NCBI RefSeq assembly: GCF_030297595.1
Contig: NZ_AP028138.1
Coordinates: forward strand, 1,054,001-1,118,000
Origin: Polynucleobacter sp. HIN7
GTDB taxonomy: Bacteria; Pseudomonadota; Gammaproteobacteria; Burkholderiales; Burkholderiaceae
Length of the DNA stretch: 64,000 nt
Reading direction: 5' to 3'
The notes under the pieces were generated by a model that saw only the letters and a list, made by a program, of their open reading frames with translations, was not told where the DNA came from and ran no database searches. This document shows, piece after piece, positions 3,077 through 64,000 of the stretch; positions within the stretch are counted from its first letter, which is position 1, and the number at the start of each line of letters is the position of its first letter. The translations under genes were made by a program, and so were the position numbers.

Positions 3077-3109
3077 TGGGGATATCTGAGGGCAAATCAA
3101 AATCTTCGC

Positions 3110-3115: not shown

Positions 3116-3125
3116 CAAAATCTAT

Positions 3126-3201: not shown

Positions 3202-3209
3202 AATTCAAT

Positions 3210-3246: not shown

Positions 3247-3255
3247 TTACTCTGA

Positions 3256-42993: not shown

Positions 42994-44772
42994 TTAACGC
43001 TGACTTTCTGGTGGAAAATACCACTTACCATTACGAATGGGTAAAAAATGTCCATCATCAATTCCAACCTCTTGCGAAATCAATAAATTGAGATTTTGAT
43101 TCAATGCGAATAACAAGTCCCCGCTTAATTTTGGATTAACAGCAAGATTATTTAACTCGTCAGGGTCATTCACCAAGTCATACAACTCCACATCATTATT
43201 GGCAAGTAGCTGCTCAATGGATGTTGGTGTATTAAATTTTAACGGTGAAAAATAGCGTGTAAATCGATAACGGCCGTCATATAAGCTACGGATTGCCACT
43301 CGAGTATGAAAATTAGGTTGATTTTTTAATAAGTACTGAACTTTATCTTTATTCGAAACATTCCCAGCAAACATATAGTCAAAAGTGACCTCTGCCCACA
43401 CTGGGCTTTGATAAGACAACATATCAAAATTAAACAAGCTGCCAATTCGGATGGAATCAGGTTTAGCCACCTCGGGGTTCGCAACTAATGAAGAAAAGTC
43501 TTTTCCCTTAAGCCCCTGAGAAGCTTTGGTTCGTGATGCAGAATCCTTACCCGTAAAACCAATAATCGTTGGTGTTAAATCAAGTTGAGACGTCACTGCA
43601 TTACAGCTCTTGCCCCCAGCAAAAGCAGGATGCACAACGATGAGTGGTAAATGATTTTGCTCGCGATAGGCGTTGGTTCCCTTACCGCGCATTTGGTGAG
43701 CACCGCCAAGCTCCCCATGATCTGAAGTAAAAATTACAATCGTATTGTTCTCGAGACCTGAGTCTTTTAATGATTTAAGCACAAGCTCAACTTGTCTATC
43801 ACAATCACGGATGCAATTAAAGTAGTAATCCAATAAAAGTCGCCAGCGACGATCCTCGTTGGGCCATTGCCCTAACATAACATCCTGAATGGTTTGATAA
43901 ATGGAATGCGCGCGGGGGCGCCCCGGAGCGTTCAATGCTTGATTTCGAGACCGTGGCAAGGGATAGTTGGTCCAACTCGCCTTATAGATCTCACTATTTG
44001 GGGGCGGCAAGATTGGTACGGCATGTTTTTTTCCTTGCACTACCTGATTTGGCAAATCAGAATTAATCCACATTGCATCATGCGGATTAACAAAATTGAC
44101 CGCTAGATACCAGGGTTGTTTTTTAGTACGCAAATCTTGCGCTGTGGTCCGAAACCAGCGATCCACAGTGCTAGCAGTTGATTGATCAAAAGTGTACCCA
44201 CCCTGTGGCCCATCGGTAATATCGCCCACACCAAAGTAATCAGCAAATCCATAGCTGGCGATGATCTTTTGGTACTGCTCAACCGGCGCTTTTGCGGGAT
44301 CGGCCTGCTGATTTAAGTTATACGATAGATGCCATTTCCCTTGATAAGCAGCATGGTAACCAAGCTCGGCCAGACGACTGCCAATGGTTTTAACTTTGGT
44401 TGACATATCAGGCTGCCACAAATAATTCAAATTATCAAACACACCCGTTTCTTGAATATGCTGTCCGGTATAAATCACCGAGCGGGCTGATGAGCAAACA
44501 CATGACGCTGCTTGATGGTTAACAAAACTAATTCCTCGCTTTTTTAAGGATTCTCTTGCGGGGACTGGAAATGGCCATTGAGGAAAAAAATGCTCCTGAT
44601 CAACCAGGATGAAAAGAATGTTATAGCCAGCCGGTAATTGTTGTTGCTGGGAATTTTGAGATTGCAAAGTACTCGCTGCTGCTTTATTGGTAGTGGGCAA
44701 TAATGAAGTGCCAAGTATCCCGGCACCAGCGGCTAAAGCATTACGGCGTGATGGATTTTCAATTGAACTCAT
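42994..44772 (-). CDS. Exported sulfatase-family hydrolase
   Basis: A 592-residue alkaline-phosphatase-superfamily enzyme with a Tat-like signal (SRRNALAAG). LVDQEHF near 57-63 and FTSDHGELGG hold metal ligands. The residue converted to formylglycine should be Cys93 in CSSAR (93-97), where the consensus is C-x-P-x-R; Ser stands at the Pro position. The long C-terminal region with DLVNDPDELNNLA is typical of choline-sulfatase and related enzymes. No formylglycine-generating enzyme gene is in the window. Substrate unknown. Confidence 0.87.
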   Translation of the reverse strand: MSSIENPSRRNALAAGAGILGTSLLPTTNKAAASTLQSQNSQQQQLPAGYNILFILVDQEHFFPQWPFPVPARESLKKRGISFVNHQAASCVCSSARSVIYTGQHIQETGVFDNLNYLWQPDMSTKVKTIGSRLAELGYHAAYQGKWHLSYNLNQQADPAKAPVEQYQKIIASYGFADYFGVGDITDGPQGGYTFDQSTASTVDRWFRTTAQDLRTKKQPWYLAVNFVNPHDAMWINSDLPNQVVQGKKHAVPILPPPNSEIYKASWTNYPLPRSRNQALNAPGRPRAHSIYQTIQDVMLGQWPNEDRRWRLLLDYYFNCIRDCDRQVELVLKSLKDSGLENNTIVIFTSDHGELGGAHQMRGKGTNAYREQNHLPLIVVHPAFAGGKSCNAVTSQLDLTPTIIGFTGKDSASRTKASQGLKGKDFSSLVANPEVAKPDSIRIGSLFNFDMLSYQSPVWAEVTFDYMFAGNVSNKDKVQYLLKNQPNFHTRVAIRSLYDGRYRFTRYFSPLKFNTPTSIEQLLANNDVELYDLVNDPDELNNLAVNPKLSGDLLFALNQNLNLLISQEVGIDDGHFLPIRNGKWYFPPESQR

Positions 44773-50997: not shown

Positions 50998-53088
50998 ATG
51001 AACCTGACATATTCAGTGATCGCAACACGGCGATCAGCCCTTTGGCTTGTGGCAACAGCTGCATTTAGTAGTGCAGCCATCGCACAACAAAATCCCATGC
51101 AAATTGATGTCACGGGCTCCCGTGAGTCTGCAAGCAGTATTTTGACTCCCACCAAGATCTTGCAAGGTAATGAGCTGCAAGATAAATTAGGCACCACCTT
51201 AGGTGCCACCATTGGAAATGAACTTGGTGTATCGCAAACGGGTTACGGTCTTGGTGCCTCGCGTCCTGTGATGCGCGGTCTCGAAGGAGCACGCGTACAG
51301 ATCTTACAAAACGGTCTATCGGTTGGCGATGTCTCAGCAATCTCTGCCGATCATGCGGTAGCCAGCCCAGTAGCGAACGCCAGACAGATTGAGATTTTGA
51401 GAGGGGCTGCCGCCCTGCTCTATGGCTCAGGATCGAGCGGTGGTTTGGTGAATATCGTCAATGATCGGATTCTGACAACGCTACCTGGTAAAGCTACGGG
51501 TGCTGTGAACACTAGCTATGACACGGTGAGCAATGGTCGTGCCGCATCGGGTGTCATTGAAGGCTCCGTAGGATCTGTGGCAGTTCATGTGGATACAGCA
51601 ATCAATAACAACCAGAACTATCGGATTCCGGGGAATTCAACCTTAGCTCCAGGGGGATGGCCAATCGGCCCCTATGAGGGAGAGACCGCTCCCAACTACA
51701 CCGGGAAGCTTCCCAACTCTTTTAACAACCAAAATAACTTGGGTGTAGGTGCGTCGTACATCGGTAAATCAGGGTACACAGGAATCTCAGTTGAGCGTTT
51801 GAACAATAACTACGGTATTCCAACGCCTGAGGGTGGATTTATTAATCAATCTCAAAATCGATACGACTTCCAGCACCAAACCCGTGAGCCATTTGCGGGG
51901 TTCTCTTCGATTAAGTTCAGCGCAGCGAATGGCAACTACAACCATACTGAATTTAAAACTTCTGGCGAAGCAGCTGCGGTTTGGAAAAACATAGCTAATG
52001 AATTTCGTTTAGAGCTTGCGCATAAACAGTTCATGGGCTGGAAAGGAACGTTTGGCGCACAAGTAACTAACAGTTCGATGGAGGCCACAGAGGTTGAAAG
52101 CGGAAGTTATGCCATCTTGCCATCCACCAAAACAAACTCGAATGCGCTCTTCTGGATTGAGGAAGGAAGATGGGGGGCATTGCAAGGAAATCTAGGCTTG
52201 CGTTACGACAACGTTGGGCAAAAACCGAATCTTGCAACAGAGTTTGAGGCTCCTTATTATGCAGGTCCAGGTGCCGCCCCTCTAGCGCCAGGCTTACAAA
52301 ACCGAAATTTCAATCTTCTATCGTATTCAGCAGGAGGTCTCTGGAACTTTGCAAACGGTTATGGAACTGGGTTGTCTTACACCGTTTCACAAAGAGCTCC
52401 TTCGGCTCCTGAACTTTACTCCTATGGGGTTCATGAAGCTACAGCGACTTTTGTTGTTGGAAACTCAAACCTCAATAAAGAAACCTCTCATAACCTCGAG
52501 TTGAATATCCAAAAAACATTAGGCAAAGTCAAAGGTAAGGTGAATGTATATCTCAACAAATTTAATAACTACATTTATGGTTACTACCTTCCGAATGAGT
52601 ATGCTGGGGCAGAAGATGATGAGCTATTCAACGTAGTCCAATATCAACAAGCCGCTGCCACCATTAAGGGGGCTGAGGGTGAGCTGACCTACAACTGGGG
52701 TAATGTCGGCAGTGGTGCACGCTTGTTTGCCGATGCGTCTCAAGGCACCTTTGATGCGGGTGGTAACCTGCCCTTGCAGCCTGCTCCTCGCGTTGGTGTG
52801 CAGGTGGCGCATCAGAAGAATGGTTGGTTGGCGAACGCCAGTTATACCTATAGCTTTCAGCAAAATCGTCTTGCTGACTGGGAGGTTGGCCCAACTCCAA
52901 GCTATAACCTCTTAAATGCCGGTTTGTCCTATACCGAAAAGATCAATAAGGTGAGTTGGACGGGCTATATGATGCTCAGAAATATTCTGAACGATGATAT
53001 TCGCTATGCCACCACACCGATGGCAGTTCGTTTGTATGCACCCCAACCGGGTCGCAGTTTGATGGTGGGTGTTCGAGCTAACTTCTAG
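50998..53088 (+). CDS. TonB-dependent outer-membrane receptor, ZnuD-like
   Basis: A 696-residue receptor. After a signal peptide (AAIAQQ) comes the plug: TLGATIGNELGVSQTGYGLG, RPVMRGLEGARVQILQNGLSVGD, SADHAVASPVANARQIEILRGAAALLYGSGSSGGLVNIV. The phrases ATLGATxGNELGV and DHAV...IEVLRGPAALLYG are those of ZnuD zinc receptors. A 22-strand barrel ends in RSLMVGVRANF with terminal Phe. It would take zinc or a zinc complex across the outer membrane, energised by TonB. I start at ATG 50998. Its end overlaps the convergent acyltransferase gene by 11 bases. Confidence 0.87.
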   Translation: MNLTYSVIATRRSALWLVATAAFSSAAIAQQNPMQIDVTGSRESASSILTPTKILQGNELQDKLGTTLGATIGNELGVSQTGYGLGASRPVMRGLEGARVQILQNGLSVGDVSAISADHAVASPVANARQIEILRGAAALLYGSGSSGGLVNIVNDRILTTLPGKATGAVNTSYDTVSNGRAASGVIEGSVGSVAVHVDTAINNNQNYRIPGNSTLAPGGWPIGPYEGETAPNYTGKLPNSFNNQNNLGVGASYIGKSGYTGISVERLNNNYGIPTPEGGFINQSQNRYDFQHQTREPFAGFSSIKFSAANGNYNHTEFKTSGEAAAVWKNIANEFRLELAHKQFMGWKGTFGAQVTNSSMEATEVESGSYAILPSTKTNSNALFWIEEGRWGALQGNLGLRYDNVGQKPNLATEFEAPYYAGPGAAPLAPGLQNRNFNLLSYSAGGLWNFANGYGTGLSYTVSQRAPSAPELYSYGVHEATATFVVGNSNLNKETSHNLELNIQKTLGKVKGKVNVYLNKFNNYIYGYYLPNEYAGAEDDELFNVVQYQQAAATIKGAEGELTYNWGNVGSGARLFADASQGTFDAGGNLPLQPAPRVGVQVAHQKNGWLANASYTYSFQQNRLADWEVGPTPSYNLLNAGLSYTEKINKVSWTGYMMLRNILNDDIRYATTPMAVRLYAPQPGRSLMVGVRANF

Positions 53089-53827
53089 AAGTCTCAATCA
53101 TGGATCGCACCTGGTTCTCGCAATACAGCGCGAGATCCTTGCGATCCAGTTCGACTGCAGGGCTTGGTGCAAAGATCAGCTCGACGGTAATAGCTTTGGC
53201 TCTCAGCATCTTGGCAATGGAATCAATCAAGGTCATGTCGCCAATGAAGGCGGTGGCATCGCTATATTCCTGATGCGCATTGCGATACCGAATGGCCATT
53301 GGGAAGGTTTGAACCTGGGTTTGGGCGGCTGACTCAAAGAGATTCGTCTTGAAGGGTAAAACCCGATCTCCTGCCGTCGAGGTGCCCTCTGGGAAGATGC
53401 ATATTGGCTCTTTAGGCAGAAGGTCTTCTAATTGTTTAGCAATCTCTTTGCCGTGTCGTTTGTTATCTCGACGAATAAAGAGCGTACCGGTTTGCCTTGC
53501 CATCCAGCCAAAGATGGGCCAGCTTGCTACCTCGGATTTGGCGACAAAGCGGCAAGGCAAGAAGGAATGAATACTGGCAATATCAATCCAAGAAATATGG
53601 TTAGCCGAAATCAGATAGCCCCCGCTCTTGGGTAAATACTCGGCATTGATGACCTTGAGTTTGAGCTTAAAGATCTTAAGAAGTTGTCTTGACCAAGTCT
53701 GAATATGATGTTTTTTGGTCGATTCCTGCGCAAAGGGGAAAATCACAATCAGAATCAATGCGCCTTTGATCACATGGAAAATGATTTGCAAGGCGGGCCA
53801 GAATAAGAGTCGGGATGAATCTGCCAT
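53078..53827 (-). CDS. 1-acylglycerol-3-phosphate acyltransferase-like protein (PlsC/OlsA family)
   Basis: A 249-residue membrane-associated acyltransferase: hydrophobic N-terminus (about 8-32), the catalytic NHISWID with His77 and Asp82, and FPEGT at 145-149. PlsC makes phosphatidic acid; the related OlsA finishes ornithine lipid from lyso-ornithine lipid, and the family cannot be split on motif alone. Divergent from plcP and only 96 bases away, with the three-repeat Pho box between them, it could share phosphate control. An olsB-type gene is nearby. Confidence 0.87.
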   Translation of the reverse strand: MADSSRLLFWPALQIIFHVIKGALILIVIFPFAQESTKKHHIQTWSRQLLKIFKLKLKVINAEYLPKSGGYLISANHISWIDIASIHSFLPCRFVAKSEVASWPIFGWMARQTGTLFIRRDNKRHGKEIAKQLEDLLPKEPICIFPEGTSTAGDRVLPFKTNLFESAAQTQVQTFPMAIRYRNAHQEYSDATAFIGDMTLIDSIAKMLRAKAITVELIFAPSPAVELDRKDLALYCENQVRSMIETSRS

Positions 53828-53860
53828 AGTTGAGATAATAAAGGGGGTTGCCCCGGAGCT

Positions 53861-53893
53861 TGTCATCAAACTGACACCAAAGTGTCATGATGA
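53861..53893. promoter_or_regulatory. Pho box: three 11-base PhoB repeats
   Basis: Three successive 11-base units, TGTCATCAAAC, TGACACCAAAG and TGTCATGATGA, give TGTCA/TGACA/TGTCA at exact 11-base spacing, matching the PhoB consensus (TGTCA, six bases, TGTCA). The last unit ends 30 bases before the plcP start, the right place to replace the -35 element (a weak -10, CATTGT, is at 53910). The divergent plsC gene may also be served, since the reverse strand reads TGACA/TGTCA/TGACA at the same spacing. Confidence 0.82.
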
Positions 53894-53923
53894 TTTCATG
53901 ATGCGGTGGCATTGTAGAGGTCC

Positions 53924-54790
53924 ATGGAGCACTATCGAGCCATTTGGATCTCAGACGTGCATCTCGGGACACCTGGATGCCAGGCAAAGTTCCTCCTCGA
54001 TTTCTTAAAGCATAACGAATCCGATACTCTTTATTTGGTTGGCGACATCATTGATGGCTGGCGCTTAAAGAAGAGTATTTACTGGCCTCAGTCGCATAAC
54101 GATGTCGTGCAAAAGATCTTACGCAAGGCTCGCAAAGGTACTGAGGTCGTCTATGTGCCCGGTAATCATGATGAGTCTGTGCGTCAGTTCTTGGGCCTCT
54201 CCTTTGGTGAAATCAAAGTCGTTCCGGAGGCTATTCATACGACGGCCGATGGTCGCAAGCTCTGGATTACCCATGGTGATTTATTTGATGGCGTGATGCA
54301 ATACGCCAAGTGGCTTGCCTATGTGGGCGACAATCTCTACTCCCTCATTTTGTACTTCAATCGCTATCTCAATCTACTGCGTATTCGGATGGGCATGCAG
54401 TATTGGTCGCTCTCACAATACTTAAAGCACCAGGTCAAGAATGCGGTGAGCTACATTGCCGACTTTGAAATGATCATGGCCCGCGAGGCCCGTTTACGGG
54501 GCTGCCAAGGCGTGGTCTGTGGGCATATTCATAAAGCCGAGATCCGTATGATCGATAACCTCCTCTATTGCAATGATGGCGATTGGGTCGAGAGTTTGAC
54601 CGCCTTAGTTGAGACCCATGAGGGTGAGCTCAAGATTGTGCATTGGCCACGCATCTTAGATGACAAACCGGTTATCGAAGAGGTGATGGTTGAGCAAATG
54701 AGTCTATCGATTTCTTTTCCGAGCCGAGCCGCATCGCCTGCGTTGATGGCGCAATCCACTACCACTCATTCAATGGAGACTATTTCATGA
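53924..54790 (+). CDS. plcP: PlcP-type metallophosphoesterase (phosphate-starvation phospholipase C family)
   Basis: A 288-residue cytoplasmic metallophosphoesterase of the COG2908 group. Metal motifs are DVHLG at 11-15, GDIID at 40-44, GNHDE at 80-84, THGD at 116-119 and GHIH at 200-203. The family also contains LpxH (UDP-diacylglucosamine pyrophosphatase) but QSHNDVVQKILRKARKG and WSLSQYLKHQVKNAV are typical of PlcP of Sinorhizobium and marine bacteria, which splits phospholipids to diacylglycerol and a phospho-alcohol under phosphate stress. Directly next are an Agt-type transferase and dgkA (ATGA overlaps), and a Pho box lies upstream. An LpxH-like role cannot be excluded from sequence alone. 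Confidence 0.83.
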   Translation: MEHYRAIWISDVHLGTPGCQAKFLLDFLKHNESDTLYLVGDIIDGWRLKKSIYWPQSHNDVVQKILRKARKGTEVVYVPGNHDESVRQFLGLSFGEIKVVPEAIHTTADGRKLWITHGDLFDGVMQYAKWLAYVGDNLYSLILYFNRYLNLLRIRMGMQYWSLSQYLKHQVKNAVSYIADFEMIMAREARLRGCQGVVCGHIHKAEIRMIDNLLYCNDGDWVESLTALVETHEGELKIVHWPRILDDKPVIEEVMVEQMSLSISFPSRAASPALMAQSTTTHSMETIS

Positions 54791-55815
54791 GAATCATGAT
54801 CGTAACTGACGCTTGGGAACCCCAAGTCAATGGGGTTGTCAGAACCCTCAAGCAAACCACCTATGAGCTCCAAAAGATGGGGCATCAGGTCGAGATGATT
54901 ACGCCCACAGAATTTAAGACCATTCCCTGCCCCACCTATCCAGACATTTCTTTATCGATCTTGCCTGGCAAAGGTGTCACTAAACGCATGAAGGCCTTCT
55001 CGCCCGATGCAATTCATATTGCGACCGAGGGTCCACTGGGCCTGGCCGCACGCTCCTACGCACTGCGCCACAACTTACCATTCTCCACCGCTTATCACAC
55101 CCGTTTTCCGGAATACGTCTACGCACGCACCCGCATTCCACTGGCGTGGACTTATCGGTTTCTGAAGTGGTTTCATGGTCCCTCGATGGCAGTGATGGCG
55201 CCCACTCAAGTGGTGAAAGACGATCTCGAGAAATACGGTTTTGACAATGTCGTGATCTGGTCGCGCGGCGTTGATCTAGAGATATTTAAAGTCCAACCCT
55301 CCAAAGTATTAAATTCAGCTCATCCTATCTTTTTATATGTGGGTCGGGTTGCGGTTGAGAAAAACATCAATGCGTTTTTGGAAATTGATCTCCCGGGATC
55401 AAAGTGGGTAGTCGGAGATGGTCCGGCCTTAAAGGAAATTAAAGAGAAATACCCACTCGTCAACTATCTTGGTGTCTTAAATCAATATCAATTGGCTGAG
55501 GTCTATGCAGCCGCTGATGTCTTTGTGTTCCCGAGCAAGACTGACACCTTTGGTCTCGTTTTACTTGAAGCCATGGCTTGCGGTTTGCCTGTAGCAGCCT
55601 ATCCTGTCACTGGTCCAATTGATGTACTGGGTGATTCCAAAGCTGGAGTCATGCATGCGGATTTAAAGACCGCGTGTATGGAAGCCCTAAGGATTCCGCG
55701 TGAGGTGGCCCGCGCCCATGCCGAGAAGTTCTCATGGAAAGCGGCGAGTGAGCAGTTTGCCAATCATCTAAAGCCAGTGCGTGTGCATGTGAGCACGCAA
55801 ACGGTTCCCGCTTGA
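54787..55815 (+). CDS. Agt-type glycosyltransferase (diacylglycerol glycosylation)
   Basis: A 342-residue GT-B family 4 glycosyltransferase. VTDAWEPQVNGVVRTL at the N-terminus, HIATEGPLGLAAR, FSTAYHTRFPEYVYARTRIPLAWTYRFLKWFH, and the donor region ADVFVFPSKTDTFGLVLLEAMACGLPVAA are shared with Agt of rhizobia, which makes glycosyl-diacylglycerol or glucuronosyl lipid from the product of PlcP. It is coupled to plcP and dgkA by four-base overlaps on both sides. The donor sugar is not readable from the sequence. Confidence 0.85.
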   Translation: MRIMIVTDAWEPQVNGVVRTLKQTTYELQKMGHQVEMITPTEFKTIPCPTYPDISLSILPGKGVTKRMKAFSPDAIHIATEGPLGLAARSYALRHNLPFSTAYHTRFPEYVYARTRIPLAWTYRFLKWFHGPSMAVMAPTQVVKDDLEKYGFDNVVIWSRGVDLEIFKVQPSKVLNSAHPIFLYVGRVAVEKNINAFLEIDLPGSKWVVGDGPALKEIKEKYPLVNYLGVLNQYQLAEVYAAADVFVFPSKTDTFGLVLLEAMACGLPVAAYPVTGPIDVLGDSKAGVMHADLKTACMEALRIPREVARAHAEKFSWKAASEQFANHLKPVRVHVSTQTVPA

Positions 55816-56216
55816 TGAGCCAACCATACGACATTAAACAAAATCCCCATAAGGGGAATCGCGGTCTGACCCGAGCGATTCATGCGGCCAAGAACTCCTG
55901 GCATGGTTTGGTCTTTGCATTTAAAGAGGAAAGTGCTTTCCGGCAGGAACTGGTCTTATTAGTAGTCTTAAGTCCCGTTGCTGCTCTCTTGCCGATCGGC
56001 CTTCTTGCGAAGGCTCTCATGATCTGCTCCTTAATCATGGTGCTGGTGATTGAACTGCTGAACTCGAGCGTAGAAGCCGCTATCGACCGAATCTCCTTTG
56101 AGCACCATGACCTCTCCAAGCGGGCCAAGGATTTTGGCTCTGCCGCTGTGATGCTAGCCCTACTCATTGCCTTTGTGATCTGGGCTACCGTCCTCTATCA
56201 AGAATTTATTCAATAA
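55812..56216 (+). CDS. dgkA: Diacylglycerol kinase DgkA
   Basis: A 134-residue integral membrane kinase with three helices. NSWHGLVFAFKEESAFRQELVLL is the N-terminal amphipathic part and VIELLNSSVEAAIDRIS carries the catalytic Glu and Asn motif of the family. It phosphorylates diacylglycerol to phosphatidic acid. Placed after plcP and agt in one overlapping run, it provides a return path for diacylglycerol that PlcP releases and Agt does not use. Confidence 0.93.
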   Translation: MMSQPYDIKQNPHKGNRGLTRAIHAAKNSWHGLVFAFKEESAFRQELVLLVVLSPVAALLPIGLLAKALMICSLIMVLVIELLNSSVEAAIDRISFEHHDLSKRAKDFGSAAVMLALLIAFVIWATVLYQEFIQ

Positions 56217-56234
56217 AAACAATTACTTATGATT

Positions 56235-56263
56235 TTGTCACCCCTGCCTTATTCCTGTAATAT
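56235..56263 (+). promoter_or_regulatory. Sigma-70-type promoter for the olsB-like gene
   Basis: -35 TTGTCA (56235-56240), a 17-base spacer and -10 TAATAT (56258-56263), 39 bases before the start. The -35 contains TGTCA, the core of a PhoB repeat, but no second repeat at 11-base spacing is seen. Confidence 0.5.
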
Positions 56264-56301
56264 ATGCCCTATAGGATCAGGCTATCAACTAAGGAATCAC
56301 A

Positions 56302-57249
56302 ATGCCTGATATCCCAAATCCTTTTTCGCCTTTAGACAACCTATTTATTACAACGAAACGTCATGCGAACGCATCAATTTCCACTAAACCCTGGGCGGAT
56401 AAATTGAATCCTCTCAAAAAGCTCTTTGGCAAAAAGCCAGAGACTCCTGAGGGCGATATCAAGTCCGACACGCCCACGTCTAAGACTGGATTAGAAAACG
56501 TTCCTCAGCTCTTAGGTAAAGCCAAGCGTGCTCCCTTTAAGATCTCGTGGGCCATCAATGCCGAGGAGATTAAAGAGGCGCAGCGCCTGCGTTACAAGGT
56601 ATTTGCCGAAGAGATGGGTGCGCATCTGCCAGTCAATGAAGAGGGTCTTGATATCGATGAGTTTGATGCCTATTGCGATCATTTATTGATTCGTGACCCA
56701 GAGACCTTACGCGTCATTGGTACTTACCGGGTCCTGCCACCTCATAAAGCCAGTCAACTTGGCCGCCTTTACTCAGATTCGGAGTTTGATCTCTCCCGCA
56801 TTAATCACTTGCGACCCAAAATGGTTGAGGTGGGTCGCTCGTGTGTGCATGAAGACTATCGCTCGGGTGCAGTGATCATGGCGCTATGGAGTGGTCTTGG
56901 CCAGTATATGAAGCAGCACCAATACGAGATCATGCTTGGTTGCGCCAGCATCCCAATGGCCGATGGCGGTCACTATGCAGCCAGCCTCTACAACTCGCTC
57001 GGACCAGAGCAAATGGCACCCGTTGAGAACCATGCGTTTCCGAAGCTACCTCTCCCCTTAGATCGCTTAAATGGCGGTCTGCATGTGGAAGCACCACCGC
57101 TCATTAAGGGCTACCTGAAACTCGGGGCTAAGATTTGCAGTGCTCCTGCTTGGGATCCCGACTTCAACACCGCCGACCTACTCACGATGCTGCGCCTCTC
57201 AGAAATGAATCCGCGCTACGCGAAGCATTTTCTGGAAAAGGCGGACTAA
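56302..57249 (+). CDS. OlsB-type GNAT acyltransferase (ornithine lipid synthesis)
   Basis: A 315-residue protein. After about 75 residues of low conservation comes the acyl-ACP N-acyltransferase domain: AQRLRYKVFAEEMGAHL, DEFDAYCDHLLIRDP, VIGTYRVLPP, VEVGRSCVHEDYRSG and IMLGCASIPM. These match OlsB, which joins a 3-hydroxyacyl chain to ornithine, or related hemolysin-like acyltransferases. AAGGA 6 bases upstream supports ATG 56302. It lies 85 bases after dgkA with its own promoter. Ornithine lipid, a phosphorus-free membrane lipid, fits the neighbourhood; substrate is inferred. Confidence 0.8.
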   Translation: MPDIPNPFSPLDNLFITTKRHANASISTKPWADKLNPLKKLFGKKPETPEGDIKSDTPTSKTGLENVPQLLGKAKRAPFKISWAINAEEIKEAQRLRYKVFAEEMGAHLPVNEEGLDIDEFDAYCDHLLIRDPETLRVIGTYRVLPPHKASQLGRLYSDSEFDLSRINHLRPKMVEVGRSCVHEDYRSGAVIMALWSGLGQYMKQHQYEIMLGCASIPMADGGHYAASLYNSLGPEQMAPVENHAFPKLPLPLDRLNGGLHVEAPPLIKGYLKLGAKICSAPAWDPDFNTADLLTMLRLSEMNPRYAKHFLEKAD

Positions 57250-58814
57250 TCCGTTAGCTTTAGGGTGTAGCGGTACCCGATTCGTTCCCACTCCGCCGCT
57301 TCTTTACGTAGACTGAACTCGGTTAAGGGGTGGGCATTGGCCCACTGCCGATCAATCGCAACCTCAAAGGTCTCGCTATTAGGATTCTTTATCTTCACCT
57401 TTGGTAGGTGCTCATCCATGCGTGAGCGGCACAAGACATGCGCTAGACGAATGCAGAATAACATACGCCAGTCGGTGAAGTTGGCATTGTTTGAGAGCTT
57501 GCCCAGTTTGCCTGTATGTCCTAATAAGAGCGCTGCCAGTCGGGCTTGATCATTCTTGGAGAACCCTGGCATATCCGCATTTGCGGCGATATAGGCTGAA
57601 TGTTTGTGATAGCCGTTATGCGAGATTGATAATCCGACTTCATGTAGGTTTGCTGACCAACCAAGTAAGGCAAGGTTATCGGTACGGCTCTCGTGATTAG
57701 GCTTTGGTAATTGGGCTAAGAACTCCGCTGCCAAAGTGCCTAAACGATGCGCCTGCTCACGATCAACTGCATAACGTTGCATAAACTGCTCAACGGTCAC
57801 AAAGCGCATGTCGTCGTGCTGCGTCCGTCCTAATAAATCGTAGAGCACGCCAACTCGGAGGGCTGCATCACTAACTTCCATACGCTCAATACCTAACTCA
57901 TCAAAGATGGCGAGCATGATGGATAGTCCACCCGGCAAGACGGGGCGACGATCATCCTTGAGGTTGATGAGATTGACTCGATCGATGTGATCAAAATCTA
58001 GAAGGCGTTTCTTCAGGCCCTTGAGACCCTGCAAGGTAATTACTCCGGCACCACTATTGTCTAGCGGGTCCAGGGTTGACTTCTCCCCTGAACCATTCAA
58101 TTTGTTATCCGCTATCAAGTCAGCCAAAGCGCGTGCCGTTCCCGATGAGCCAATCACTTGATTCCAGCCCGATTTACTAAATCGGCCCTTAATTACCTGC
58201 ACCTCACGACGCGCAGCCAGCTCAGCCTCTTTGAATGCGTGGGGATCAATCACTCCATTGGGGAAAAAACGAATACTATGCGATACACAACCAATATAAA
58301 GGCTCTCCAGGAGCTTCGGCTCGTAACCCTTACCGATGATGAACTCACTCGAGCCACCACCCACATCGATTACCAAGCGATTGCCTGAAACAGCTGGAGC
58401 CTCATGCGAGGTACCGATATAAATGAGACGGGCTTCTTCCACTCCAGCGATTACCTCAATCGGAAATCCCAAAGCAACCTGAGCCTCTTGCACAAACTTT
58501 TGCGCATTGCGCGCTACCCGTAAGGTGTTGGTGGCAACGGCTCTCACCTGTTCAGGTCGAAAGCCCCGCAAGCGCTCGCCAAAGCGTCGAATCGCCCCTA
58601 AACCCCGCTCCATCGCCTCGTCATCCAAGACCTTGCCAGGGGTTAGGCCGGCTGCCAAACGAACTGGCTCGCGCAAGGTGTCGATGGTACGTAACTGCAT
58701 CCCGGAGGGAGTAATGTAGGCCTGGCAGATGAGCAATCGAAAGCTATTGGAGCCAAGGTCTACAGCGGCCACTAGGTCTAGTCCGGGCTTATTAGGGGTG
58801 CTGGTCTTAGACAC
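57246..58814 (-). CDS. ppx: Exopolyphosphatase Ppx/GppA
   Basis: A 522-residue ASKHA-fold phosphatase. VAAVDLGSNSFRLLI is the first phosphate motif, LVIDVGGGSSEFII the second, and IGSSGTARALADL and SIMLAIFDELGIERM follow; the C-terminal third is the HD-like domain with HEVGLSISHNGYHKHSAYI. It releases phosphate from polyphosphate ends or acts on pppGpp. Divergent from ppk with 77 bases between starts, and convergent (four-base overlap) with the olsB-type gene. Confidence 0.94.
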   Translation of the reverse strand: MSKTSTPNKPGLDLVAAVDLGSNSFRLLICQAYITPSGMQLRTIDTLREPVRLAAGLTPGKVLDDEAMERGLGAIRRFGERLRGFRPEQVRAVATNTLRVARNAQKFVQEAQVALGFPIEVIAGVEEARLIYIGTSHEAPAVSGNRLVIDVGGGSSEFIIGKGYEPKLLESLYIGCVSHSIRFFPNGVIDPHAFKEAELAARREVQVIKGRFSKSGWNQVIGSSGTARALADLIADNKLNGSGEKSTLDPLDNSGAGVITLQGLKGLKKRLLDFDHIDRVNLINLKDDRRPVLPGGLSIMLAIFDELGIERMEVSDAALRVGVLYDLLGRTQHDDMRFVTVEQFMQRYAVDREQAHRLGTLAAEFLAQLPKPNHESRTDNLALLGWSANLHEVGLSISHNGYHKHSAYIAANADMPGFSKNDQARLAALLLGHTGKLGKLSNNANFTDWRMLFCIRLAHVLCRSRMDEHLPKVKIKNPNSETFEVAIDRQWANAHPLTEFSLRKEAAEWERIGYRYTLKLTD

Positions 58815-58891
58815 GGTATTTAGGATTTATTAAAGTCAAAGACTATTATCGTATGAAATAAAAGTGACACATTTGTGAAATATAAAGAGAT

Positions 58892-60985
58892 ATGTCACTT
58901 CTATTACTCAACCGTGAAATCGGTATCCTCGAGTTTAATTCACGGGTTCTGGCGCAAGCGGAGGATCCGAAGATCCCCCTACTGGAGCGCATTCGCTTTC
59001 TGAGCATTGTCTCGAGTAATCTCGATGAGTTTTTTGAGATTCGGATGTCAGGTATCAAGGAACAGCTCATCGATAACCCCTTAAAGGTAGGCTCTGATGG
59101 GCGGACCATTGCAGAGAGTTATGAACTGGTCTCTCAACATGCCCACACCTTGGTTGAGCGCCAGTATCATCTTTATCAACAGGTGCTGATCCCGCAGTTA
59201 CGCAAAGCGGGTATTGAATTTTTACTACCCGATTACTGGAATGATGAACAGCGAGTTTGGGCTGAAGACTTCTTTAAAGAAGAACTCTTTCCCTTACTCA
59301 CACCCATCGCCCTCGATCCGGTTCACCCTTTCCCACGCGTCATCAATAAAAGCCTGAACTTTATCGTTCAACTTGATGGGAAGGATGCTTTTGGACGCAA
59401 GGCTAATCTTGCTGTGGTGCAAGCACCGCGCGCACTGCCTCGTTTGGTCAAAATGCCTCACCGCTTATCAGGCAATACGAACACCTTTGTATTTTTATCC
59501 TCCTTTATTCAAGCGTATGTGGGTCAGCTATTTCCGGGGATGAAAGTGCTTGGTTGCTATCCATTTCGGGTGACGCGTAATTCTGATCTGTTCGTTTCCG
59601 ATGATGAGATCACCGATCTTCGTCAAGCCTTGCAAGGCGAGCTACCTACCCGTCACTTGGGTGATGCAGTGCGCCTAGAGGCGAATATCAATATTCCAGA
59701 TGCTCTCTTACAGCGCTTATGCAAGGAAAATAATCTTGATATGCGCGATTGTTACCGTGTCAATGGCCCGGTCAATTTGGTCCGCCTTGCTCAACTCCCA
59801 GACTTGGTTGATGAGCCTAAGCTGGTCTTTAAACCATACACTCCTGCCATACCATTTAAGCACGGCTCAGGTAATGGAGCTGTCTCATTCTTTGAGCGCA
59901 TTAAGCAGGCCGATATTCTTTTGCATCATCCCTATGAGAGCTTTGAGCCCGTCTTAGATCTATTGCGCGAAGCAAGTCGCGATCCTCACGTATTGGCAAT
60001 TAAGCAAACGGTGTATCGGACTGGTGATAAATCGCCAGTCATGGAGGCTTTAATTGAGGCTGCCCAAAATGGCAAAGAGGTTACGGTGGTCCTTGAGCTC
60101 CTTGCCCGTTTTGATGAGCAAACCAATATCAACTGGGCAGCTCGCTTAGAGGAAGTGGGTGCACATGTGGTCTATGGAGTGGTCGGACATAAATGCCATG
60201 CCAAACTATTGCTGATCGTTCGTAAAGAGAAAATCCATAAGTCCGGAAAATCCTCATTGGTGCGCTATGCCCACCTTGGAACCGGCAACTATCACCCCCG
60301 TACCGCTAAGCTCTACACCGACTTTGGTTTGATGACCTGCGATCCACTCATCACCAAGGATGTGCATCAAGTTTTTCAGCAACTCACTGGCACTGGGATG
60401 CAGCTCGAGACCCGCGAACTGTGGGAAGCGCCCTTCACTATGCTCGAGCAACTCGTACATCACATCCGCGCCGAGACCAAGGCCGCAAAACAAGGTAAGA
60501 AAGCGCGCATTATCGGCAAGATGAATGCTCTTTTAGAAAAGACCATTATCGAAGAGCTCTATAAAGCCTCGCAGGCCGGAGTGAAGATCGATCTGATTGT
60601 GCGCGGGGTCTGCGCTCTGCGCCCTGGGGTGAAAGGTCTGTCCGAGAACATCAAGGTACGCTCGATTGTGGGTCGCTTTTTAGAGCATCACCGGATTTAT
60701 TACTTCTATCATGGCGGCTCTGAACAGGTCTATCTGTCGAGCGCAGATTGGATGGAGCGTAATCTCCTGCGCCGCGTGGAGGTTGCCTTCCCGGTAAAGG
60801 ATCCCAAACTCAAGCAACGGGTGATTAACGAGGGCTTAATGATTTTTCTCAAAGACAATGCCTCAGCATGGCTAATGAAGCCCGATGGTGGTTACGTGAA
60901 GAGTAAGCCACGCAGCAACCAAACCCCGATCGTGGGTCAGCTCGAACTGCTTAAGAAATTCGCTCGGGGGGAAAGCGCAGGGTAA
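58892..60985 (+). CDS. ppk: Polyphosphate kinase 1
   Basis: A 697-residue enzyme of standard length that makes polyphosphate from ATP. MSLLLLNREIGILEFNSRVLAQAED and RIRFLSIVSSNLDEFFEIR open the N-terminal domain; the phosphorylated His is His436 (GHKCHAKLLL), as in E. coli His435, and HLGTGNYHPRTAKLYTDFG, RSIVGRFLEHHRIYYFYHGG and NLLRRVEVAFPV complete the kinase half. It is divergent from ppx and its last 35 bases overlap the phoR gene convergently. Confidence 0.97.
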   Translation: MSLLLLNREIGILEFNSRVLAQAEDPKIPLLERIRFLSIVSSNLDEFFEIRMSGIKEQLIDNPLKVGSDGRTIAESYELVSQHAHTLVERQYHLYQQVLIPQLRKAGIEFLLPDYWNDEQRVWAEDFFKEELFPLLTPIALDPVHPFPRVINKSLNFIVQLDGKDAFGRKANLAVVQAPRALPRLVKMPHRLSGNTNTFVFLSSFIQAYVGQLFPGMKVLGCYPFRVTRNSDLFVSDDEITDLRQALQGELPTRHLGDAVRLEANINIPDALLQRLCKENNLDMRDCYRVNGPVNLVRLAQLPDLVDEPKLVFKPYTPAIPFKHGSGNGAVSFFERIKQADILLHHPYESFEPVLDLLREASRDPHVLAIKQTVYRTGDKSPVMEALIEAAQNGKEVTVVLELLARFDEQTNINWAARLEEVGAHVVYGVVGHKCHAKLLLIVRKEKIHKSGKSSLVRYAHLGTGNYHPRTAKLYTDFGLMTCDPLITKDVHQVFQQLTGTGMQLETRELWEAPFTMLEQLVHHIRAETKAAKQGKKARIIGKMNALLEKTIIEELYKASQAGVKIDLIVRGVCALRPGVKGLSENIKVRSIVGRFLEHHRIYYFYHGGSEQVYLSSADWMERNLLRRVEVAFPVKDPKLKQRVINEGLMIFLKDNASAWLMKPDGGYVKSKPRSNQTPIVGQLELLKKFARGESAG

Positions 60986-62243
60986 AGGTACTACCCTTGC
61001 CAAGCGTACTCTCAACCACTAACTGGGCTTGATGACGGCTCGCCACATGCTTCACAATCGCTAGCCCAAGACCGGTACCACCGGTCTCGCGCGAGCGACT
61101 CCGATCCACTCGATAGAAGCGCTCCGTTAAGCGTGGAATGTGTTCCGCTGAAATCCCAGGTCCCGTATCGGTTACCGAGAACTCGCCCTCACCCGCAGGA
61201 TTGATACCCCACGAGACCGTAACTGATCCCACTTCAGGTGTGTACCGTATGGCATTTGATACTAAATTACTAAAAGCCGATAACACCTCGCGCTCTTCAC
61301 CCAATAAATTACAGGTTGTATTGAGATTAAAGTTCAGAGCATGTTTACCCTGCGATAAGGCGTAGGCATCATTCTTAATGAGCGACATCAGATAGCTCAT
61401 GGAAACGCTGTTCAGAGGTGCTGGCTGCGTATTGGCCTCAAGGTTTGCCAGAGTTAAGAGGTCCTCAACTAAATTCTTCATGCGCTTACCTTGATCCATC
61501 ATCATCTCGAGGTATTGGGCCTTTTGCTCGGGTGGTAGATCCAAGGTTTGCATGGTCTCCAAAAAGCCCATCATGACGGTGAGCGGTGTGCGCATCTCAT
61601 GCGAAACATTGGCCACGAAATCACGCCGCATGGCCTCAGCCTTACTCAAATCCGTGATGTCCTGAATCAAGACTAAGCGGCGGTTCTCAGAGAACGGAAA
61701 TGCTTGCAGACGAAGTATCAGGCTTGAACCACTCATCTTCTCCAACACAATCGGCTCTTCATAATTGCGCTCAGTGATGTATTGCACAAACTCTGGTTTG
61801 CGGACGATGTAATGAATCCGTTGTAACACATCACGTTTGAGCTCAATCCCCAAAAAGCGTTCCGCAATCGCATTGCACCACTCGATTTGATCTTGATCAT
61901 CAAGCATCACAATACCATTCGGGGATGCCTGAAACGCCTCAATAAAGCGTTTATGCTGGCGCTCTGCCTGCTCAATGTCTTTACGCAAGCCAGTAATAAT
62001 GCGTTGGAGCTTGAAGAAGATTTCTGCCCAAGCGCCGCCAAATCCCGATAAATGAGAGATTCCTGCTCCCTTTACAAAGGCGTCTAGGCGGGATTGATTG
62101 ACATAGGCAATGAATAGGCTAAACACAATGATGAATACCGCAAGAAGCCAACCAAGCTCATCCCGTAGAAACCACTCACCAATCAAGCCAGCAACGCCGG
62201 CAAGCAGAAGGATTGGGATAAGGCGGAGAAATCCAGAAAGCAT
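60951..62243 (-). CDS. phoR: Phosphate-sensing histidine kinase PhoR
   Basis: A 430-residue inner-membrane kinase: two N-terminal helices (about 5-22 and 30-48), a PAS domain (about 96-200), a dimerisation domain with His215 in FVANVSHEMRTPLT, and an ATPase domain with FSNLVSNAIRYTPE (N box), DTGPGIS (G1) and GTGLGLAIVKH (G2). Architecture equals PhoR. It phosphorylates PhoB when phosphate is scarce. It lies 51 bases downstream of phoB, last in pst-phoU-phoB-phoR. Confidence 0.95.
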   Translation of the reverse strand: MLSGFLRLIPILLLAGVAGLIGEWFLRDELGWLLAVFIIVFSLFIAYVNQSRLDAFVKGAGISHLSGFGGAWAEIFFKLQRIITGLRKDIEQAERQHKRFIEAFQASPNGIVMLDDQDQIEWCNAIAERFLGIELKRDVLQRIHYIVRKPEFVQYITERNYEEPIVLEKMSGSSLILRLQAFPFSENRRLVLIQDITDLSKAEAMRRDFVANVSHEMRTPLTVMMGFLETMQTLDLPPEQKAQYLEMMMDQGKRMKNLVEDLLTLANLEANTQPAPLNSVSMSYLMSLIKNDAYALSQGKHALNFNLNTTCNLLGEEREVLSAFSNLVSNAIRYTPEVGSVTVSWGINPAGEGEFSVTDTGPGISAEHIPRLTERFYRVDRSRSRETGGTGLGLAIVKHVASRHQAQLVVESTLGKGSTFTLRFPPERIS

Positions 62244-62294
62244 GGCGACATCTTAGAGCATCTTCCGGAGATGCTCAAAAATTAAGCATAACGC

Positions 62295-63005
62295 CTAAGC
62301 TGGGGTTTTAGTGATCCGGTAGCCGCTACCGCGCACGGTCTCGATATATTGATCACAATTGGCTTCCGATAGGGCCGCGCGTAAGCGCTTAATATGGACA
62401 TCAACGGTCCGCTCCTCGATGTAGACCTGATCGCCCCAAACCCGATCCAGAAGATGCGAGCGGCTATGAACCCGCTCAGGATTGCCCATGAAGAACTGCA
62501 GAAGGCGGAATTCGGTTGGGCCCAAGTTGAGCGATTGCTCTTTTTCTCCAAGATGGGTTACTGTGATGCGATGAGTAACTGGGTCTAATAGAATGGGTCC
62601 GAGTTTTAATACATCGTCACTCATCCCTAAGACCGTATTACGTCGTAATAGTGCCCTCACCCGAGCAATGAGTTCATTTGGCGAAAATGGCTTGGTCACA
62701 TAATCGTCTGCCCCAGAGTCTAGCCCCTGGATCTTATCGGCTTCTGCGCCTTTGGCGGTCAGCATCAGAATGGGTATATTTTGTAACTCAGGACTAGCGC
62801 GAAGTTCTTTGGTGAATTGCACCCCCGATTTACCGGGCATCATCCAATCCAAGATCAATAAATCGGGTTTTTGAGATTTAATCTTTTGCAGCCCCTCCTC
62901 CGATTGCAGGGCACGCTCCACAGTAAAACCTGAATGAGTTAGATTAATCGCAATCAGTTCTGCAATCGAAGGTTCATCTTCAATAATCAGAATGCGGTGT
63001 GACAT
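62295..63005 (-). CDS. phoB: Phosphate response regulator PhoB
   Basis: A 236-residue OmpR-type regulator. Receiver with acidic pocket IIEDEPSIAE, phospho-acceptor Asp53 (LLILDWMMPG) and the switch Lys in DYVTKPFSPNEL; the C-terminal winged helix contains RVHSRSHLLDRVWGDQVYIEERTVDVHIKRLR, the DNA-recognition helix that reads TGTCA repeats. It would bind the three-repeat box at 53861-53893. The gene starts 3 bases after phoU's stop. Confidence 0.97.
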   Translation of the reverse strand: MSHRILIIEDEPSIAELIAINLTHSGFTVERALQSEEGLQKIKSQKPDLLILDWMMPGKSGVQFTKELRASPELQNIPILMLTAKGAEADKIQGLDSGADDYVTKPFSPNELIARVRALLRRNTVLGMSDDVLKLGPILLDPVTHRITVTHLGEKEQSLNLGPTEFRLLQFFMGNPERVHSRSHLLDRVWGDQVYIEERTVDVHIKRLRAALSEANCDQYIETVRGSGYRITKTPA

Positions 63006-63008
63006 GGG

Positions 63009-63713
63009 CTACTTAGTCGCCTCGCGAACTAGGTCATCATGTGGCACATGACGAACGTCGGCGCCTTTCACAATATAGATCACAAACTCTGCAATATTTT
63101 TTGAGTGATCTCCAATCCGCTCGATTGCTTTTGCAATCGATAAAAGATCCAGTCCGGTTGAGATCATCTTGGGATCTTCTGCCATGTAAGTAATGAGTTT
63201 ACGCACAAAACCCCTAAACTCTTCATCGATTTGTTTATCATCCTCAACCACTTTGGCAGCCGAGGCGGCATCAAGACGTGCAAAACAGTCAAGGGAACGG
63301 CGCAATAGCTCAATGGCCATTTGCCCGGAGAGCTTAATCTCCGCAGCATTAATTTTATAGTTCGGCGCCTGCTCAATCACGCGCTTGGCACGCTTCGCAA
63401 CAATTTCTGCTTCATCGCCGGCTCGTTCAAGATTGGTAATCGCCTTAGAAATCGCCATGACCAATCGCAAGTCACGGGCTGTTGGTTGACGACGCGCAAT
63501 TAACTCAGTGCATGCAGAATCAATTTCAACCTCTAAGGTATTAATTGATTTTTCTCGTTCAATGACTTGATTGCATAAATCAATATTAGTTTCTGAGAAT
63601 CCACGCATGGCAACCTCGACCTGGGACTCTACTAGGCCACCCATTTTAAGCAGCTTGCTACATAAAGAATTTAAGTCCTCGTCAAATTGAGATGATAGAT
63701 GGCGATCGTTCAT
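63009..63713 (-). CDS. phoU: Phosphate-system regulator PhoU
   Basis: A 234-residue all-helical protein made of two PhoU repeats (about 18-105 and 122-215). Family sequences visible are the E-x3-D-type metal motifs around NLERAGDEAEIVAKRA and ERIGDHSKNIAEFV. PhoU links the Pst transporter to PhoR and damps Pho signalling when phosphate is plentiful. It lies 12 bases after pstB and 3 before phoB. Confidence 0.96.
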   Translation of the reverse strand: MNDRHLSSQFDEDLNSLCSKLLKMGGLVESQVEVAMRGFSETNIDLCNQVIEREKSINTLEVEIDSACTELIARRQPTARDLRLVMAISKAITNLERAGDEAEIVAKRAKRVIEQAPNYKINAAEIKLSGQMAIELLRRSLDCFARLDAASAAKVVEDDKQIDEEFRGFVRKLITYMAEDPKMISTGLDLLSIAKAIERIGDHSKNIAEFVIYIVKGADVRHVPHDDLVREATK

Positions 63714-63725
63714 TGCTTCTCCTCA

Positions 63726-64000
63726 CTAACCAAAGCGACCAGTGATGTAATCCTCGGTTTCTTTACGCTTTGGCTTAATAAAAATTTCATCGGTTTTGCC
63801 GTATTCAATCAGTTCACCCAAATACATATAGGCGGTGAAATCAGAAACACGCGCAGCTTGTTGCATATTATGAGTCACAATCGCAATCGTGTAATCCTTT
63901 TTGAGCTCATTGATTAGCTCTTCGACCTTAGCCGTTGAAATGGGGTCTAGAGCTGAGGTTGGCTCATCCAATAACAGAACCGATGGCTTCACTGCGACAC
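63726..64000 (-). CDS. pstB: Phosphate ABC transporter ATPase PstB, C-terminal part (5' end outside window)
   Basis: The open frame runs off the right edge, so only the last 91 codons are seen. They contain Walker [15 protein letters not shown], the switch His of [15 protein letters not shown], and the C-terminal [12 protein letters not shown], the standard end of PstB. It energises high-affinity phosphate import with PstCA (outside). The Walker A and signature motifs are not in the window. Confidence 0.95.

What the first reader, a model, noticed from the sequence alone, without database searches (positions are those of the whole stretch)
53078..57249. Phosphate-linked membrane-lipid remodelling cluster: PlsC, PlcP, Agt, DgkA and OlsB-type genes beside the Pho regulon
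Seen: plcP-agt-dgkA overlap by ATGA at both joints; a plsC/olsA-type gene is divergent and an olsB-type gene follows; ppx, ppk and pstB-phoU-phoB-phoR come next; a triple PhoB repeat precedes plcP. Known: PlcP with Agt replaces phospholipids by glycolipids under phosphate starvation in Sinorhizobium and marine bacteria, and OlsB/OlsA make phosphorus-free ornithine lipid. Inference: one compact freshwater-betaproteobacterial module covers phospholipid breakdown, glycolipid synthesis, diacylglycerol recycling and ornithine lipid. The inclusion of dgkA inside the plcP-agt run is the part I have not seen described.
Basis: partly seen in the sequence, partly recalled or inferred. Interest (0 to 1): 0.8.

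Follow-up and report, generated by a model that had tools for sequence, protein, structure and literature searches.

The report
Phosphate-starvation lipid-swap operon with diacylglycerol kinase
A freshwater bacterium carries, beside a phosphate-starvation switch, genes predicted to strip phosphorus-containing membrane lipids and replace them with sugar and ornithine lipids; the unusual member, a diacylglycerol kinase, turns out to be a recurrent partner that is even fused to the glycolipid enzyme in some marine bacteria.

Summary
The cluster is real and the gene calls hold: plsC/olsA-type (divergent), plcP, agt, dgkA and olsB, beside ppx-ppk and the Pho genes, in a single-contig Polynucleobacter-type genome. 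A four-unit, 11-bp PhoB-type array lies 64 bases before plcP; its triple form is the only perfect match in the 1.8-Mb genome, and an array is kept in 33 of 33 testable congener loci. The best reading is a PhoB-controlled phospholipid-replacement module, known in kind. The part called undescribed, dgkA inside the run, is not local: 28 of 37 congener genomes have the full order; plcP-agt-dgkA recurs in Burkholderia, Paraburkholderia, Caballeronia and Cupriavidus; plcP-dgkA linkage occurs in 8 of 25 families of the order. In three SAR116 (marine) loci Agt and DgkA are one fused protein, closest to Burkholderiaceae among the genomes compared, so probably acquired across classes. Published proteomics already lists a diacylglycerol kinase with PlcP/OlsAB under phosphate starvation in Pseudomonas putida. 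I infer that DgkA returns surplus diacylglycerol to phosphatidic acid. No enzyme, lipid or transcript was measured.

The parts
53078..53869 (-). plsC/olsA-type acyltransferase (263 aa), probably the second (O-acyl) step of ornithine-lipid synthesis
   Evidence: PF01553; best NCBIfam hits are OlsA models but under their cut-offs (140 and 137 of 300), while the general TIGR00530 is passed (104.6/102.95). Scores 124-147 bits (tblastn) against the plsC-type genes of L079, L159, L169 and L211, which lie next to olsB homologues, but 41.6 bits (blastp) against the genome's other PlsC at C1:1608525.
53860..53899 (+). Four-unit, 11-bp PhoB-type direct repeat (Pho box array), 64 bases before plcP and between the divergent genes
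53924..54790 (+). plcP: calcineurin-type phospholipase C-like phosphoesterase (288 aa)
   Evidence: PF00149/PF12850; below both LpxH cut-offs (43.8/134, 37.3/190); GNHDE motif, not GNRDF; PlcP rows apart from LpxH rows in the tree.
54787..55815 (+). agt: GT4 glycosyltransferase (342 aa), predicted diacylglycerol glycosyltransferase
   Evidence: PF13439/PF00534; the two best NCBIfam hits are glycolipid synthases, all hits under cut-off; follows plcP in 33 of the 34 congener loci read.
55815..56216 (+). dgkA: diacylglycerol kinase (133 aa), the only PF01219 gene found in the genome
   Evidence: PF01219 106.8 bits; aligns over 117 residues without gaps with solved diacylglycerol kinases, E=4.9e-29; single match in G000.
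56302..57249 (+). olsB-type ornithine N-acyltransferase (315 aa)
   Evidence: PF13444 130.6 bits; best NCBIfam hits are OlsB models, 173 and 168 bits, under cut-offs 350 and 320.
57246..58814 (-). ppx-type exopolyphosphatase/GppA-family gene next to the module
58853..58881 (.). Second PhoB-type triple repeat (2 mismatches), between divergent ppx and ppk
   Evidence: G000:C1:1112853-1112881.
58892..60985 (+). ppk1
60951..63998 (-). phoR, phoB, phoU and the 3' part of pstB

Best explanation
This is a PhoB-controlled membrane phospholipid-replacement operon. When phosphate runs out, PhoB binds the four-unit array and drives plcP-agt-dgkA-olsB, and probably the divergent olsA-type gene. PlcP cuts the phosphorylated head group from phospholipids and leaves diacylglycerol (DAG); Agt caps DAG with glucose or glucuronate to give phosphorus-free glycolipid; OlsB and the OlsA-type enzyme make ornithine lipid. 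DgkA is the return valve: it phosphorylates DAG that Agt does not use back to phosphatidic acid, keeping free DAG low and saving the acyl glycerol skeleton. Shown here: gene identities by profile, order, conservation, array, co-loss, linkage and fusion. Inferred from characterised relatives: every enzymatic step, PhoB binding and co-transcription. The valve role of DgkA is the least certain step (about 0.6).
For: Separate LpxH in the genome (266/134 and 221.6/190 bits) while PlcP fails both models. PhoB-type array unique in the genome at 0 mismatches and kept in 33 of 33 testable congener loci. Order plsC-plcP-agt-dgkA-olsB in 28 of 37 congener genomes, own included. In the 5 congeners where dgkA is not between agt and olsB, olsB has its own PhoB-type array (5 of 5; 19-23 of 28 matches, 0 of 500 shuffles as good). 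In those 5 genomes a dgkA is found elsewhere, in three of them only one outside the cluster-type DgkA group. All 34 congeners with a plcP (G023's frameshifted copy counted) have a PF01219 gene; the 3 with none or a remnant (G017, G027 and the poor assembly G022) have no PF01219 match. None of the 37 has PF04349 of the periplasmic-glucan pathway, and the own genome's one PF00884 gene resembles sulfatases rather than MdoB or EptA (that MdoB and EptA belong to PF00884 is recalled), so PlcP is the only DAG source I found. plcP and dgkA within about 4 kb in 14 of the 54 genomes of an order draw that have both, 8 of 25 families, against about 0.16 genomes expected. Agt-DgkA fusion in SAR116, 3 of 3 loci. 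P. putida BIRD-1 proteomics: PlcP, DagK, OlsA, OlsB enriched at low phosphate (PMC5082522, passages).
Against: No lipid, transcript or enzyme was measured. Agt, OlsA- and OlsB-type proteins all stay below NCBIfam equivalog cut-offs, so product specificity is open. Order-wide, dgkA is only weakly associated with plcP (54 of 64 with plcP, 46 of 66 without; Fisher p 0.061), so DgkA has other uses elsewhere. G023 has frameshifts in plcP and plsC but an open agt, dgkA and olsB. Co-loss in G017 and G027 could be one linked deletion. The olsB array contrast is not clean: of the 27 other congener loci tested, six also reach p<=0.02 with 16-19 of 28 matches (L064: 0 of 500), and the window's own olsB upstream has 16 of 28, p 0.036. 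Of 14 named loci outside the genus tested for a three-unit array before plcP, 8 have one at p<=0.05 and 6 do not (both Cupriavidus, Caballeronia L139, L146, L160, L162), and none was seen before SAR116 plcP (best 13 of 21). In PMC5082522 the results passage on proteins lost in the phoBR mutant names PlcP and OlsAB but not DagK; the discussion calls all four Pho-dependent. DgkA spends an ATP phosphate and returns DAG to a phosphorus-bearing lipid, which on its face opposes phosphate saving.
Confidence: 0.78

Rival explanations
1. The module is as described but dgkA is a passenger: a short housekeeping gene parked in a handy operon in compact genomes, handling DAG from any source.
For: dgkA is widespread in the order without plcP (46 of 66 genomes without plcP have it); in 5 congeners it sits elsewhere.
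Against: Linkage recurs in 8 of 25 families, with about 0.16 of 54 genomes expected by chance; plcP is followed by dgkA without agt in L204; an Agt-DgkA fusion exists; the genus shows no periplasmic-glucan gene PF04349 (0 of 37).
Confidence: 0.25
2. The phosphoesterase is LpxH or an LpxH-like lipid A enzyme and the cluster is an envelope cluster.
For: Same superfamily; LpxH is the best PDB hit by sequence, at E=1.4e-4 over 116 residues.
Against: An LpxH that passes both models lies elsewhere in the genome; the window protein scores under a third of those cut-offs; GNHDE in 134 of 138 PlcP rows against GNRDF in 3 of 3 LpxH rows; separate sides of the tree (3 LpxH rows only, on long branches).
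Confidence: 0.03
3. The DgkA-family protein phosphorylates another lipid alcohol (such as undecaprenol) to supply a lipid carrier rather than recycling DAG.
For: The family includes undecaprenol kinases in Gram-positive bacteria (recalled, not tested).
Against: All 5 solved sequences matched are named diacylglycerol kinase, E 1e-26 to 1e-29; its genomic partners are predicted to make or use DAG.
Confidence: 0.06

Closest known systems
plcP-agt lipid-remodelling operons of Pelagibacter HTCC7211 and Erythrobacter NAP1 (PMC4796936, section 13 read whole, other passages), Methylosinus OB3b (PMC9239053, passages) and P. aeruginosa PA3219-PA3218 (PMC8528852, passages)
   Same: plcP followed by agt; Pho boxes reported in marine plcP clusters and before the P. 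aeruginosa operon; DAG as intermediate; MGDG and/or GADG glycolipids shown there.
   Different: Here dgkA follows agt, and olsB and an olsA-type gene are in the same cluster beside ppx-ppk-phoRB. The words kinase and (for the first) dgk do not occur in the main texts of PMC4796936 and PMC8528852, and neither dgk nor diacylglycerol kinase in PMC9239053.
Pi-starvation lipid set of Pseudomonas putida BIRD-1: PlcP, DagK, OlsA, OlsB (PMC5082522, passages)
   Same: The same functions enriched together at low phosphate; the discussion calls them Pho-dependent.
   Different: A proteome set; the passages I read give no single-operon arrangement with agt, and do not say which kinase family DagK belongs to.
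olsB regulation in Burkholderia sensu lato (PMC7814305, passages)
   Same: olsB with predicted Pho boxes in 21 of 43 genomes.
   Different: plcP does not occur in that text; here olsB is at the end of the plcP run or has its own array.
Solved diacylglycerol kinases, 3ze3 and relatives (that they are the E. coli enzyme is recalled)
   Same: Align over 117 of 133 residues without gaps.
   Different: Genomic setting; in SAR116 the homologue is the C-terminal domain of Agt.

Membership tests
PlcP phospholipase C | Calcineurin-type metallophosphoesterase with metal-site motifs | tested here: met
   PF00149/PF12850; H13, D41, N81, H82, H117, H201, H203 invariant in 17 homologues (their role as metal ligands is recalled).
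PlcP phospholipase C | Distinct from LpxH, with LpxH present elsewhere | tested here: met
PlcP phospholipase C | Next to a non-phosphorus-lipid synthesis gene and a Pho box | tested here: met
PlcP phospholipase C | Hydrolyses phospholipid to DAG | not testable with these tools
   No assay; no characterised PlcP sequence was at hand for direct comparison.
LpxH | Passes LpxH equivalog cut-offs; GNRDF motif | tested here: not met
   43.8/134 and 37.3/190 bits; GNHDE.
Agt DAG glycosyltransferase | GT4 family directly after plcP | tested here: met
Agt DAG glycosyltransferase | Passes a curated equivalog model for a DAG/glycolipid glycosyltransferase | tested here: not met
   Best 84.1/480 and 63.3/400 bits; no Agt-specific model appeared among the 25 hits shown of 28, so this lowers certainty of the product.
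DgkA | PF01219 above cut-off and near full-length alignment to solved DAG kinases | tested here: met
   106.8/22.3 bits.
OlsB | PF13444 domain and OlsB equivalog cut-off | tested here: inconclusive
   PF13444 130.6/22.4 met; OlsB models are the best hits, 173/350 and 168/320, not passed.
OlsA | OlsA equivalog cut-off; second to a housekeeping PlsC | tested here: inconclusive
   140/300 not passed, TIGR00530 104.6/102.95 passed; a second PF01553 gene exists; akin to plsC-type genes next to olsB elsewhere.
PhoB regulon | Tandem 11-bp Pho-box half-sites, conserved in relatives | tested here: met
   binding itself not tested.

The most novel reading that the evidence does not exclude
Agt and DgkA form a dedicated DAG-partitioning pair behind PlcP: one caps DAG with sugar, the other returns it to phospholipid, and their balance sets how far a cell replaces its membrane. 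In Polynucleobacter the two genes follow each other, in the same frame in 19 of 27 congener loci measured; in SAR116 they have become a single two-headed enzyme that crossed from a Burkholderiaceae-like donor to marine alphaproteobacteria.
Probability: 0.33. Interest if true: 0.65.

Novelty: new variant of a known kind. Interest (0 to 1): 0.5.

Why it matters
In the papers I read in part, phosphate-saving lipid replacement is drawn as a path from phospholipid to DAG to glycolipid. Recurrent linkage of dgkA to plcP and a natural Agt-DgkA fusion point to a built-in return branch, testable with one gene deletion. The module also predicts that freshwater Polynucleobacter remodel their membranes under phosphorus limitation; my two searches that paired Polynucleobacter with lipid or phosphate terms listed no paper on it (of which only the top 20 and 15 titles were shown).

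Tried and rejected
LpxH identity: rejected. dgkA in the run as a private trait of this genome or of freshwater species: rejected. Strict dependence of dgkA on plcP across the order: not supported (Fisher p 0.061). A MdoB/EptA-like DAG source in the genome: one PF00884 gene, best hits choline-sulfatase and arylsulfatase models, all far under their cut-offs. SAR116 nested inside Polynucleobacter: suggested by the separate PlcP and DgkA trees (SH-aLRT 90 and 88, quick trees), not by the Agt tree, where SAR116 stands outside Burkholderiaceae with next to no support (0 and 14); in the joint PlcP+Agt tree Polynucleobacter without SAR116 is a clade (87/90) and SAR116 plus Polynucleobacter has only 76/69. 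So the donor is left as Burkholderiaceae-like. SAR116 with the two other alphaproteobacteria is rejected, p-AU 0.0164, with long branches and odd composition as caveats. More fusions: in 398 genomes drawn from the phylum, 117 have an Agt match at E<=1e-70 and no listed match runs uninterrupted through both domains.

Row notes: 34 congener loci were taken and L058 dropped as too short. One search kept PlcP rows of 200-360 aa. One search left out six loci by its filter, the three SAR116 loci among them; one search put SAR116 back after cutting its fused protein at the domain border. One search kept 81 rows (window included) after dropping identical and out-of-length ones of 102 found. In one search dgkA was sought by tblastn with queries mainly from this genus, so a divergent dgkA could be missed; 74 of the 80 loci have at least 1,900 bases after plcP. 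The genome lists were cut; the counts 54/64 and 46/66 come from the listed positives and the tallies, matched by hand, and the chance figure uses the sizes of the 14 linked genomes.


Full report
What is there. The window lies at C1:1054001-1118000 of a single-contig 1,795,157-base genome. Of the 80 named PlcP loci fetched, the two closest are Polynucleobacter (L120, L121); the genus of the window is inferred from this. Between a TonB receptor and ppx lie a divergent plsC/olsA-type gene and plcP, agt, dgkA and olsB. The plcP/agt overlap is ATGA; the agt/dgkA joint is TGATG. ppk, phoR, phoB, phoU and a cut pstB follow.

PlcP, not LpxH. The own genome holds three PF00149 matches: this one, an ApaH-like protein and an LpxH beside a cyclophilin-type gene and near a cysteinyl-tRNA synthetase-type gene (ApaH and the neighbours are named by eye). 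Of the window protein and the LpxH, only the latter passes the LpxH models (266/134 and 221.6/190); the window protein reaches 43.8 of 134 and 37.3 of 190 bits. PlcP rows carry GNHDE (134 of 138), LpxH rows GNRDF (3 of 3).

Control. A four-unit 11-bp array stands at -64. In 33 testable congener loci an array is present, at -64 in 29, -75 in 3 and -48 in 1 (the remnant in G017). A triple pattern with up to 2 mismatches finds eight matches in the genome: four are this array in overlapping registers or on the other strand, two are the ppx-ppk gap, two lie elsewhere; the backward control finds none.

The module within the genus. Of 37 congener genomes (own included), 28 have plsC-plcP-agt-dgkA-olsB (in G025 the olsB frame is shorter than in the rest), one (G023) has the same order with frameshifts in plcP and plsC, five lack dgkA between agt and olsB (in one of them, G029, the contig ends before plsC), one (G017) has a plcP remnant next to an olsB remnant with agt and dgkA not found, and two (G022, a fragmented 83%-complete assembly, and G027) have no plcP. 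Two further named Polynucleobacter loci have the full order. In the five, dgkA lies elsewhere: in G006 one copy sits between phoR and phoB; G005 and G006 have a copy that groups with the cluster type plus a second one, while G009, G029 and G032 have only copies outside that group. In the same five, olsB has its own PhoB-type array (19-23 of 28, 0 of 500 shuffles); of 27 other congener loci six reach p<=0.02 with 16-19 of 28. PF01219 has no match exactly where plcP is absent or a remnant (G017, G022, G027); olsB's family PF13444 is absent in G017 and G022 and only a weak partial match in G027.

Beyond the genus. Among the 80 named PlcP loci, 46 have agt next and 22 have plcP-agt-dgkA in a row: Polynucleobacter 2, Cupriavidus 2, Burkholderia 5, Paraburkholderia 7, Caballeronia 1, SAR116 3 (there agt and dgkA are one gene) and two MAGs, one of them (L146) continuing with olsB, ppx and ppk. 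In an even draw of 130 genomes of the order, 64 have plcP (E<=1e-40), 100 have PF01219 (E<=1e-10) and 54 have both; in 14 of the 54 the two lie within about 4 kb, in 8 of 25 families, against about 0.16 genomes expected. The layouts differ: plcP-agt-dgkA, plcP-dgkA without agt (L204), dgkA before plcP (L207), divergent (L205), and in a genome without plcP an agt-like gene, dgkA, olsB and plsC in a row (L211). The chance figure assumes random placement and ignores relatedness; the family count is the fairer one. Co-occurrence alone is weak (p 0.061).

The fusion. In three SAR116 loci (L187, L191, L192; titles name single-cell-type identifiers) plcP overlaps one ORF of 464-465 aa; in L187 Pfam finds GT4 domains and PF01219 at 359-459. 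The DgkA part begins like Polynucleobacter DgkA just after its start codon. Against the window it is 63% (PlcP), 60% (Agt) and 57% (DgkA) identical; its PlcP and Agt are 65% and 58-59% identical to Burkholderia L126 and Cupriavidus L125, and 51-57% to the two other alphaproteobacteria at hand. In the phylum survey its ten best matches are ten genomes of family code f1, the window's family (57-61%); an eleventh f1 genome, G418, has none. G035 and G527, both of the window's genus, align across both domains with a single TAA between. Holding SAR116 with the other two alphaproteobacteria is rejected at p 0.0164. A transfer from a Burkholderiaceae-like source is therefore likely; the exact donor is unresolved and only two other alphaproteobacteria were in the tree. 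L191 carries two integrase-family genes upstream and PhnM-, PhnN- and PhnL-type genes downstream.

How it most likely works. PlcP makes DAG, Agt makes glycolipid and OlsB/OlsA-type enzymes make ornithine lipid, by analogy with characterised systems (PMC4796936, PMC8528852, PMC9239053; parts read as stated under Closest known systems). DgkA is inferred to take back surplus DAG. The genus shows no PF04349 (0 of 37) and the own genome no MdoB/EptA-type protein, so PlcP is the only DAG source I identified; that MdoB makes DAG in E. coli is stated in PMC4796936 (passage), that EptA-type enzymes do is recalled.

Novelty. The system is a known kind. A search for plcP with dgkA as whole words found one paper, where dgkA stands in a gene list; wider searches with diacylglycerol kinase added PMC5082522; plcP with SAR116 found two papers, and the passages I read describe no fusion; plcP with 'auxiliary metabolic gene' found none. 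A DAG kinase among the Pi-starvation lipid proteins is in print (PMC5082522).

Noticed in passing
L187:2995-4389, L191:8780-10177, L192: Agt and DgkA are one fused protein in three marine SAR116 loci; plcP overlaps it by ATGA in L187 and L191. L191 has two integrase-family ORFs (1205-2383, 2726-3946) upstream and PhnM/PhnN/PhnL-type genes downstream, suggesting a phosphorus-related island.
   Followed up: partly
L224, L225, L231, L234-L243 (IMG/VR contigs, up to 265,892 bp): 13 of 24 fetched viral-collection loci carry adjacent plcP and agt homologues (some look like near-duplicates). In L235 plcP directly follows a DNA primase matching phage families, and a ribonucleotide reductase lies about 1.3 kb after agt, so large phages seem to carry lipid-replacement genes.
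   Followed up: partly
L058-L062, upstream of olsB: olsB has its own four-unit PhoB-type array in the five congeners where dgkA is not between agt and olsB; weaker arrays occur in six of 27 others.
   Followed up: yes
window 53900-53926 and congener loci: In most congeners a conserved GGCTTAATAC-like element lies a few bases before the plcP start; if it is the -10 box the mRNA would be nearly leaderless. The window's own sequence departs from it.
   Followed up: no
L082 (G017), L083 (G023): Decay of the module in congeners: in G017 a plcP remnant is followed by an olsB remnant with agt and dgkA not found; in G023 plcP and plsC are frameshifted (or mis-sequenced).
   Followed up: partly
L211 (G060), L205 (G132): Other lipid layouts: agt-like, dgkA, olsB and plsC in a row in a genome without plcP (L211); plcP-agt-olsB with divergent dgkA near phoR/phoB-like genes (L205).
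   Followed up: no
L143: A record titled Klebsiella pneumoniae MAG carries a PlcP identical to that of G037, a genome of the window's order, so the organism label is probably wrong.
   Followed up: no
window 42994-44772: A sulfatase-family protein (592 aa) with a twin-arginine-like start (by eye), the only PF00884 match of the genome.
   Followed up: no
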